From assembly GCF_001719125.1 (NCBI RefSeq), contig NZ_CP017006.1:2370384-2434383 (forward strand): a stretch of DNA of 64,000 bases, given 5' to 3'. A program made the position numbers and the translations under genes. Positions 17,700-19,710 of the stretch are shown here, in pieces. The notes beneath the pieces are model-generated. The model had not been told where the DNA came from. It was given only the letters and a program-made list of their open reading frames with translations, and made no database searches. Position 1 is the first letter of the stretch. Each line of letters opens with the position of its first letter. This DNA is from Sulfolobus sp. A20. Its GTDB lineage: Archaea; Thermoproteota; Thermoprotei_A; Sulfolobales; Sulfolobaceae.

Positions 17700-17920
17700 A
17701 GCAAGAGAATTTAAGGCATGAGAAGTTAGGGGTTTGGGTTTCATCGGATCTCATATATATCGACCCTTGGGCTTCACGGGAGTCAAGCGAATTTTTCGCC
17801 TTCACCCTCCTCTGTCCCATTAGCGGGATAACCCCAACCCACCATCTAAGTGGAGAAACATCTCGGGCTATGTAAGCCTTTTGGGATACATACCCACATC
17901 TGGCATTATGTAAAAAAATT
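17700..17920 (-). pseudogene. C-terminal relic of a TnpB (IS200/IS605 OrfB) protein
   Basis: On the minus strand an open stretch reads CGYVSQKAYIARDVSPLRW, then VGVIPLMGQRRVKAKNSLDS and REAQGSIYMRSDETQTP. It looks like the last zinc-finger pair and C-terminal tail of Sulfolobales TnpB proteins (CGYVxxRDYxAAxNI followed by a proline/arginine-rich tail). No RuvC motifs or N-terminal half are present, so this is a fragment. The assignment rests on remembered TnpB tails and needs alignment. Confidence 0.5.
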
Positions 17921-17999
17921 AGTATGGAGTTACATAAACTTAATCCTCTCACTGAAACTGCTTACCACGGCAAATAGGTTTGATGTAAATAATAAGCCA

Positions 18000-18446
18000 T
18001 GATCAAAGGCACAATATTTATCGGAAGTCTAGGAATGTAGATAGTGGAAAACTTGAAAAATATTTAATATTTTTAATCACTTACACATCTTATTCTTGGG
18101 ATATTATATTAATTCTTCTTTGAGCTATTGACATATGTATTACCGTATAAAATATAGATTTTATATCGTAATAAAACCTTTTATTTTAACGTAGGTTTAA
18201 TTTTTACGTTAAATACGTACATTTAAGTTTCTTTATAAACATAACTATTGCGCTGTGTTAAAAAACATTTATTCTGTCATTTTCAAGTGACATTTCAATG
18301 CCCCAATACGATATAATAACCCTATTATTCATTAACTCAAACAATATTAGTTCGTCTTCATTAAGTTATTTAAAAGCGTAAAAATGCGAGTCTTAATGCA
18401 AGAAATGCGAGAATCATTTGCTTAATTAAACGTTTATAAACTCACC
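18000..18446 (+). other. AT-rich non-coding stretch, CRISPR-leader-like
   Basis: This strongly AT-rich stretch has no open frame and ends directly at the solitary CRISPR repeat. Near its end are two copies of AAATGCGAG (18382-18390 and 18403-18411, 21 bases apart, two helical turns) and a TATA-like GTTTATAAA (18432-18440). Length, composition and position match what is known of Sulfolobales CRISPR leaders, but I cannot align it to a known leader. Confidence 0.45.
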
Positions 18447-18471
18447 GTTGCATCCCAAAAGGGATTGAAAG
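18447..18471 (+). CRISPR. Solitary CRISPR-type repeat (no array)
   Basis: The 25-base unit GTTGCATCCC-AAAA-GGGATTGAAAG has the form of Sulfolobales subtype I-A/III repeats: a short CCC/GGG stem region and the invariant ATTGAAAG 3' end that becomes the crRNA 5' handle. I found no second copy in the window; a weak AACAATTAAAG at 18525-18535 is at roughly one repeat-spacer distance but is not convincing. No cas1, cas2, cas4 or Cascade gene is present. It lies between the convergent HTH/DGG gene and the 2-oxoacid dehydrogenase operon. Confidence 0.7.
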
Positions 18472-18537
18472 AAAAATGAGCAATTATTAGAGTGCAAGTT
18501 AATCTTAGAAAGAAGAATATAAAAAACAATTAAAGAA

Positions 18538-19710
18538 TTAACTAACTTTCCTCCTTAACTCCTCTTCATTTTCTATAATACTAGCCAACTCTTTTAGGAA
18601 CTTAGCCGCTGTATGTCCGTCCAATACTCTATGGTCGAAAGTCAAACTCAGCCACATCGTATATCCTATTGATATTGAGTCTCCTACAACAATAGGGCTC
18701 TTCTTTATTCTTCCCACACCTAATATTGCAGTCTGAGGTGGATTTATTATGGGAGTGAAGGAATCGATATCATACATTCCTAGATTTGATACGGTAAAAG
18801 TTCCCATAGCTACGTCATCTGGTGAAAGCTTATTTTCCCTAGCCTTATCTGCTAGCTGGTGAGCCTCTCTGGATATCTCTACTATGGACTTCTTATCTGC
18901 ATTTCTTATTACTGGTACTATTAACCCTTGGTCTAGGGCTACTGCTATACCTATGTTGATCTCATCTAATATCTTAATCTCATCTCCTTCTAAAGTAGCG
19001 TTCAAATATGGATGTGTCTTTAAAAGACTTGAGGTTAACTTGACTATAATATCAGTGTAAGTTATCTTCTCTCCAGTCTTCTTCTCTATCTCCTCTCTTA
19101 TCTTAACTAGATTAGTCGCATTTACCTCCATTGATAAGGTTACTTGGGCCATGGTTTGAAGGCTTTGGGTCATCCTCTTACTTATCTCCTTTCTCATCGG
19201 GCTCATTGGAATTATTTCTCTAACCCTTATTCCTAATAGACTAAATTTGGTCTTACTTTCTAATTCCCTTAATACGTCCTCTTCAGTTATCATTCCCCCT
19301 GGACCAGTTCCCCTTACTGCAGTTAAGTCTATACCTTTTTCTCTAGCTAACTTTCTTGCTCTCGGAGTAGACCTAACCTCTGCCTTAACCTCTGCCTTAA
19401 CTTCCATCTTTTGTCTAACATCAAGAGGTTGAGTGACTTCTTCTCCTCTAGTTATTGGTGGTGGTGTTTCTCCCGGCATGCCTATAAAGGCTATTATCTG
19501 ACCAACTGGCACCTCTTCTCCTTCCTTAGCGTAAATTTTAAGGATTATCCCACTTATTGGGGCTTTAATAGTGGTAGTTATCTTTTCAGTTTCTATTACG
19601 ACTATATCTTCTCCAGCTTCAACCTTATCTCCTTCTTTCTTCTTCCATTCAACTATTTTACCCTTAGTCATAGTTAATCCAAGTTTGGGCATTACTACCT
19701 CTTTACCCAA
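18538..19710 (-). CDS. Dihydrolipoamide acyltransferase (E2) of a 2-oxoacid/acetoin dehydrogenase complex
   Basis: The 390-residue E2 has the standard order: one lipoyl domain (residues 1-77; the lipoylated Lys is in ETEKITT), a linker rich in K/E/V, a peripheral E3/E1-binding domain (TPRARKLAREKGIDLTAVRG, about residues 115-150) and the acyltransferase core, with the catalytic DHRVLDG near the C terminus. It moves the acyl group from E1 to CoA. It is the last gene of the E3-E1alpha-E1beta-acoX-E2 block, and its start overlaps the acoX stop by eight bases. One lipoyl domain is usual for archaeal E2. Direct evidence for the substrate (acetoin, pyruvate or branched-chain acids) is lacking. Confidence 0.9.
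   Translation of the reverse strand: MGKEVVMPKLGLTMTKGKIVEWKKKEGDKVEAGEDIVVIETEKITTTIKAPISGIILKIYAKEGEEVPVGQIIAFIGMPGETPPPITRGEEVTQPLDVRQKMEVKAEVKAEVRSTPRARKLAREKGIDLTAVRGTGPGGMITEEDVLRELESKTKFSLLGIRVREIIPMSPMRKEISKRMTQSLQTMAQVTLSMEVNATNLVKIREEIEKKTGEKITYTDIIVKLTSSLLKTHPYLNATLEGDEIKILDEINIGIAVALDQGLIVPVIRNADKKSIVEISREAHQLADKARENKLSPDDVAMGTFTVSNLGMYDIDSFTPIINPPQTAILGVGRIKKSPIVVGDSISIGYTMWLSLTFDHRVLDGHTAAKFLKELASIIENEEELRRKVS

What the first reader, a model, noticed from the sequence alone, without database searches (positions are those of the whole stretch)
18000..18471. Solitary CRISPR repeat behind a leader-like region, far from any cas gene
A single 25-base repeat with the ATTGAAAG handle follows about 450 AT-rich gene-free bases with a TATA box and two AAATGCGAG repeats 21 bases apart. 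It may be a decayed or new-born array, or a single-repeat RNA that loads Cas6 or Cascade for regulation, as known for CRISPR-derived antitoxin RNAs (CreA-type) in archaea.
Basis: partly seen in the sequence, partly recalled or inferred. Interest (0 to 1): 0.75.

Follow-up and report, generated by a model that had tools for sequence, protein, structure and literature searches.

The report
CRISPR leader fused to one repeat
In the hot-spring archaeon Sulfolobus sp. A20, a leftover CRISPR locus keeps its leader promoter and one intact repeat but has lost 151 bases that active leaders carry between the two, so it probably can no longer record viruses, and its promoter now fires from underneath a repeat that the cell's CRISPR-repeat-binding protein should keep covered.

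Summary
Window 18150-18446 is about 80% identical to the leaders of all four arrays, and the match ends on the last base before the repeat. The surprise is what is missing. Every active leader examined in the genus carries about 150 bp between the leader TATA box and repeat 1, including an inverted repeat. Here 151 bp are absent, so the TATA box ends 6 bases before the repeat and the predicted transcription start (18462-18464) falls inside it, at the ATTGAAAG handle. No second repeat, spacer, protospacer, enriched guide target or syntenic copy was found. Most likely this is a CRISPR remnant disabled for spacer acquisition. Its promoter has the geometry (TATA, then a repeat covering the start site) that Cbp1 silences in S. 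solfataricus; A20 encodes an intact Cbp1. A CreA-type antitoxin, a newborn array or a Racr-type RNA is not supported. A handle-initiated, Cas6-independent crRNA-like RNA is not excluded.

The parts
18150..18446 (+). CRISPR leader (promoter-distal part up to and including the TATA box), homologous to the leaders of the host's four arrays
   Evidence: 78-80% identity, E 1e-62 to 1e-70, match ends at 18446; alignment
18382..18411 (+). Two AAATGCGAG words 21 bases apart, lying in a conserved leader block
   Evidence: aligned array-leader words are AGTATGAG and GTTGCGAG
18433..18440 (+). Leader TATA box (TTTATAAA)
   Evidence: read; identical in all four active leaders up to TTTATAAA
18446..18447 (+). 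Deletion junction: 151 bp present in the active leaders between the promoter block and repeat 1 are absent here
18447..18471 (+). Single intact CRISPR repeat with stem TCCC/GGGA and handle ATTGAAAG; predicted Cbp1 site
   Evidence: Cbp1 site inferred from PMC10883916
18462..18464 (+). Predicted transcription start, inside the repeat at the handle
   Evidence: inference: TATA centred at -26/-27 (PMC4333418) applied to 18433-18440
18472..18537 (+). AT-rich flank with no second repeat and no recognisable spacer; also the 3' flank of the E2 gene on the other strand

Best explanation
This is the remnant of a fifth CRISPR locus of the host's type I-A-like leader family. Shown: the leader up to and including its TATA box and one intact repeat remain; the 151 bp that normally separate the promoter block from repeat 1 are missing, and no spacer-repeat unit follows. 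Inferred: a deletion (possibly slippage between imperfect 17-bp direct repeats at the two ends) fused promoter to repeat. The locus can no longer acquire spacers because the repeat-proximal leader with its inverted repeat is gone. The leader promoter now starts transcription inside the repeat. The intact repeat is a single Cbp1 site over that start, so Cbp1 should silence the promoter, which otherwise points antisense into the E2 gene of a 2-oxoacid dehydrogenase cluster. The locus is therefore mainly a silent relic.
For: Only repeat outside the four arrays. Leader homology ending exactly at the repeat. All active leaders in A20 and in three other species of the genus have the missing segment, so its absence is derived. 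Imperfect direct repeats at the two ends of the segment, 12/17 at 150 bp, matched by 2 of about 430 offsets. Leader deletions abolish integration in S. solfataricus (PMC5815122) and leader-proximal mutations reduce uptake in S. islandicus (PMC9456107). Cbp1 represses promoters whose start is covered by a repeat downstream of the TATA box (PMC10883916). A20 has one intact Cbp1. No spacer, second repeat, target or synteny.
Against: The remaining leader has not changed faster than the active ones (14 versus 9 specific changes), and the repeat is intact, so relaxed constraint is not visible. No transcript, ChIP or acquisition data exist for this site. In S. solfataricus the isolated non-canonical Cbp1 sites do not recruit Cren7.
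Confidence: 0.7

Rival explanations
1. Selected single-repeat guide RNA: the fused promoter starts RNA at AUUGAAAG, giving a crRNA-like molecule with a ready 5' handle, without Cas6 cleavage, that loads a host effector to regulate a gene (works like CreA or other ectopic-repeat RNAs).
For: Predicted start coincides with the handle; handle intact; leader not decaying faster than active leaders; host has I-D and III-B effector genes.
Against: No target enrichment, no protospacer, no similarity to host spacers, no conservation beside the E2 gene in relatives. Ectopic regulatory repeats are usually degenerate (PMC9458426); this one is not. No defined 3' end.
Confidence: 0.08
2. Cbp1 operator recruited as a switch: the repeat is kept as a binding site that controls an antisense promoter at the 3' end of the E2 gene.
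For: Geometry of Cbp1-repressed promoters; 15 of 72 start sites near non-canonical Cbp1 sites rise when cbp1 is deleted; a + strand transcript would run antisense into 18538-19710.
Against: Not present beside the E2 gene in five relatives; with one genome, selection cannot be tested.
Confidence: 0.09
3. New-born array: a leader with a single repeat ready to take its first spacer.
For: Leader and repeat are in the right order and orientation.
Against: The repeat-proximal leader is missing, which is needed for integration in relatives; the leader is 20% diverged from the active leaders, so it is not a fresh copy.
Confidence: 0.03
4. Racr-type RNA anti-CRISPR: a solitary repeat unit from a mobile element that occupies Cas6/Cas7.
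For: Single repeat downstream of a promoter, away from cas genes, as described for solitary repeat units (PMC10651486).
Against: Neighbours are metabolic chromosomal genes; it carries a CRISPR leader; the predicted start would leave out most of the hairpin; the exact repeat is absent from IMG/VR.
Confidence: 0.03

Closest known systems
Leader-damaged CRISPR locus E of S. solfataricus (20-25 bp leader deletion near -46/-50; PMC5815122, PMC4390879)
   Same: Leader deletion close to the repeat; short, defective in normal spacer addition
   Different: Locus E keeps six spacers; here 151 bp and all spacers are gone and promoter abuts repeat
Promoters inside S. solfataricus array F repressed by Cbp1 (PMC10883916)
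   Same: TATA box followed by a repeat that covers the start site
   Different: Those are chance promoters in spacers; this is the leader's own promoter, outside any array
Non-canonical Cbp1 sites (PMC10883916)
   Same: Isolated repeat-like site in the chromosome
   Different: Many of the known strong ones lie in ISC1229 elements; this one follows a leader. Binding here is untested
CreA of CreTA modules (PMC8501985, PMC9458426)
   Same: Ectopic repeat behind a promoter
   Different: CreA has a guide, usually two degenerate repeats, and an RNA toxin partner
Racr / solitary repeat units (PMC10651486)
   Same: Single repeat downstream of a promoter, no cas genes nearby
   Different: Racrs lie on mobile elements; this locus is chromosomal with a CRISPR leader

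Membership tests
CRISPR array (Sulfolobales, CCN-type leader) | At least two repeats separated by a spacer | tested here: not met
   One repeat only; no second repeat remnant, p=0.7
CRISPR array (Sulfolobales, CCN-type leader) | Leader homologous to those of the host's arrays | tested here: met
   78-80% identity to four leaders
CRISPR array (Sulfolobales, CCN-type leader) | Complete repeat-proximal leader | tested here: not met
   151 bp missing
CreTA antitoxin RNA (CreA) | Guide matching the promoter of a linked toxin next to a PAM | tested here: not met
   CCN plus 9-nt seed: 3 genome sites, control 3, none in the window
CreTA antitoxin RNA (CreA) | Second (degenerate) repeat, in most cases | tested here: not met
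   one-repeat cases exist, so not decisive
CreTA antitoxin RNA (CreA) | Linked small RNA toxin (CreT) | tested here: inconclusive
   None recognised, but RNA toxins have no shared sequence to search for
Racr / solitary repeat unit | Located on a virus, prophage or plasmid | tested here: not met
   Metabolic neighbours on both sides; no viral match
Racr / solitary repeat unit | Expressed RNA that binds Cas6/Cas7 | not testable with these tools
   Needs RNA and binding data
Non-canonical Cbp1 site | Repeat-like motif with the conserved 3' core | tested here: met
   Full 25-base repeat with intact ATTGAAAG, motif as described in PMC10883916
Non-canonical Cbp1 site | Cbp1 encoded in the genome | tested here: met
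   NF040595 E=2.7e-65 at C1:651917-652369
Non-canonical Cbp1 site | Occupancy by Cbp1 in vivo | not testable with these tools
   Needs ChIP-seq in strain A20

The most novel reading that the evidence does not exclude
Deletion of the leader's 3' part created a promoter that starts RNA exactly at the crRNA 5' handle, yielding a Cas6-independent, single-repeat guide RNA whose output is switched by Cbp1 binding to the same 25 bases.
Probability: 0.08. Interest if true: 0.75.

Novelty: new variant of a known kind. Interest (0 to 1): 0.4.

Why it matters
It is a natural leader-promoter-to-repeat fusion. It would let one test, outside an array, whether a single Cbp1-bound repeat is enough to silence a leader promoter, and it is a natural deletion of the leader part thought to be needed for spacer uptake. 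It also shows one way a CRISPR locus may die in Sulfolobales, leaving promoter and repeat behind.

Tried and rejected
Protospacer or target: blastn of 18447-18540 against phages and plasmids gave only weak matches, all listed ones to bacterial elements; exact repeat core in IMG/VR none; CCN + 9-nt seed in own genome 3 = control 3. Similarity of the flank to the 253 spacers extracted: no better than shuffles. Second repeat: none. Orthologous locus next to the E2 gene in five congeners: none. Similar TATA-repeat fusions in 31 genomes: every other hit examined lies in an array. The genome-contig scan with E2 returned only distant phyla and was of no use. The dispersed 245-bp element upstream was considered as the agent of array loss, but it lies on one side only, so this stays open.

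Full report
Observation. The 25-base unit at 18447-18471 is real and not chance. The genome is one 2,688,317-bp contig, the size published for Sulfolobus sp. A20 (PMC5127849); the identification rests on this size and on the genus context. A tolerant search finds 149 forward and 110 reverse repeat matches. These are four arrays of 76, 72, 42 and 68 units plus this one. The nearest array (A) starts 246 kb away; adaptation, I-D and III-B cas genes lie with the arrays around the numbering origin. The neighbours of the solitary repeat are metabolic genes.

The region before the repeat is a CRISPR leader. Searching the genome with 18129-18542 returns, after itself, the leaders of all four arrays at 78-80% identity (E 1e-62 to 1e-70), each match ending at 18446, the base before the repeat. 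Aligned over 18150-18446 the identities are 79-81%, against 88-96% among the four active leaders.

What is missing. In each active A20 leader about 151 bp lie between the promoter block (ACGTTTATAAATTAACC) and repeat 1, with an inverted repeat of the type CATGCGAGGG...CCCTCGCATG. Leaders read in three other species of the genus have the same layout, so absence here is derived. In array B the two ends of the missing segment are imperfect direct repeats (12 of 17 bases, 150 bp apart; only 2 of about 430 offsets match as well), which would suit a slippage deletion; this is suggestive only.

Consequences. (a) Acquisition: S. solfataricus integration needs at least 400 bp of leader and internal 100-bp deletions abolish it; a 20-bp natural leader deletion in locus E goes with defective adaptation (PMC5815122). 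In S. islandicus mutating the leader-proximal end reduces uptake, and Cas1 binds a stem-loop there (PMC9456107). I did not establish that their stem-loop is the same element as the A20 inverted repeat. This locus should not acquire spacers. (b) Transcription: with TATA centred at -26/-27 (PMC4333418) the start falls at 18462-18464, inside the repeat at the handle. (c) Silencing: Cbp1 inhibits S. solfataricus promoters whose start site is covered by a repeat downstream of the TATA box, while the normal leader promoter is largely unaffected (PMC10883916); isolated repeat-like sites are bound in vivo. A20 carries one intact Cbp1, found as a 160-codon frame with three HTH matches and confirmed by NCBIfam NF040595, E=2.7e-65, with homologues in 29 of 31 family genomes. 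Points (a), (b) and (c) are predictions for this site.

Age and constraint. Against outgroup G012, 14 changes are specific to the solitary leader and 9 to the active leaders: no clear sign of faster decay. So it is either a fairly recent loss of function or a promoter still under some constraint; one genome cannot decide.

Guide-RNA readings. No second repeat remnant exists (p=0.7), the flank resembles none of the 253 spacers extracted, nothing convincing was found in phages or plasmids, and PAM-plus-seed sites in the genome equal control. No relative has the locus beside its E2 gene. These lower, but do not exclude, a CreA-like role.

Verdict. A CRISPR remnant in which a deletion fused leader promoter to repeat, predicted to be unable to acquire spacers and to be held silent by Cbp1. 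Homology and the missing segment are shown; loss of acquisition, start site and Cbp1 control are inferred.

Noticed in passing
window 17728-17975: A ~245-bp non-coding element with at least ten copies in the genome, the eight best 77-91% identical, one of them (C1:2655164-2655365, 75%) among the adaptation cas genes; no tnpB seen next to five copies. MITE or solo IS end candidate.
   Followed up: partly
window 18216-18248: The block most conserved between the A20 leaders and the G012 leader holds a second TATA-like TTTATAAA (18232-18239); it could be a second leader promoter that reads through the whole repeat.
   Followed up: no
G000:C1:15228-15856 (array D): The same pair of TATA-bearing spacers occurs twice, 521 bp apart, which suggests an internal duplication in array D.
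   Followed up: no
G000:C1:13881-18271, 2634606-2639489, 2650013-2652686, 2658195-2662819: Repeat variants change in blocks within the four arrays (for example ATAC to ATAA or AATA in the loop), with degenerate terminal repeats.
   Followed up: no
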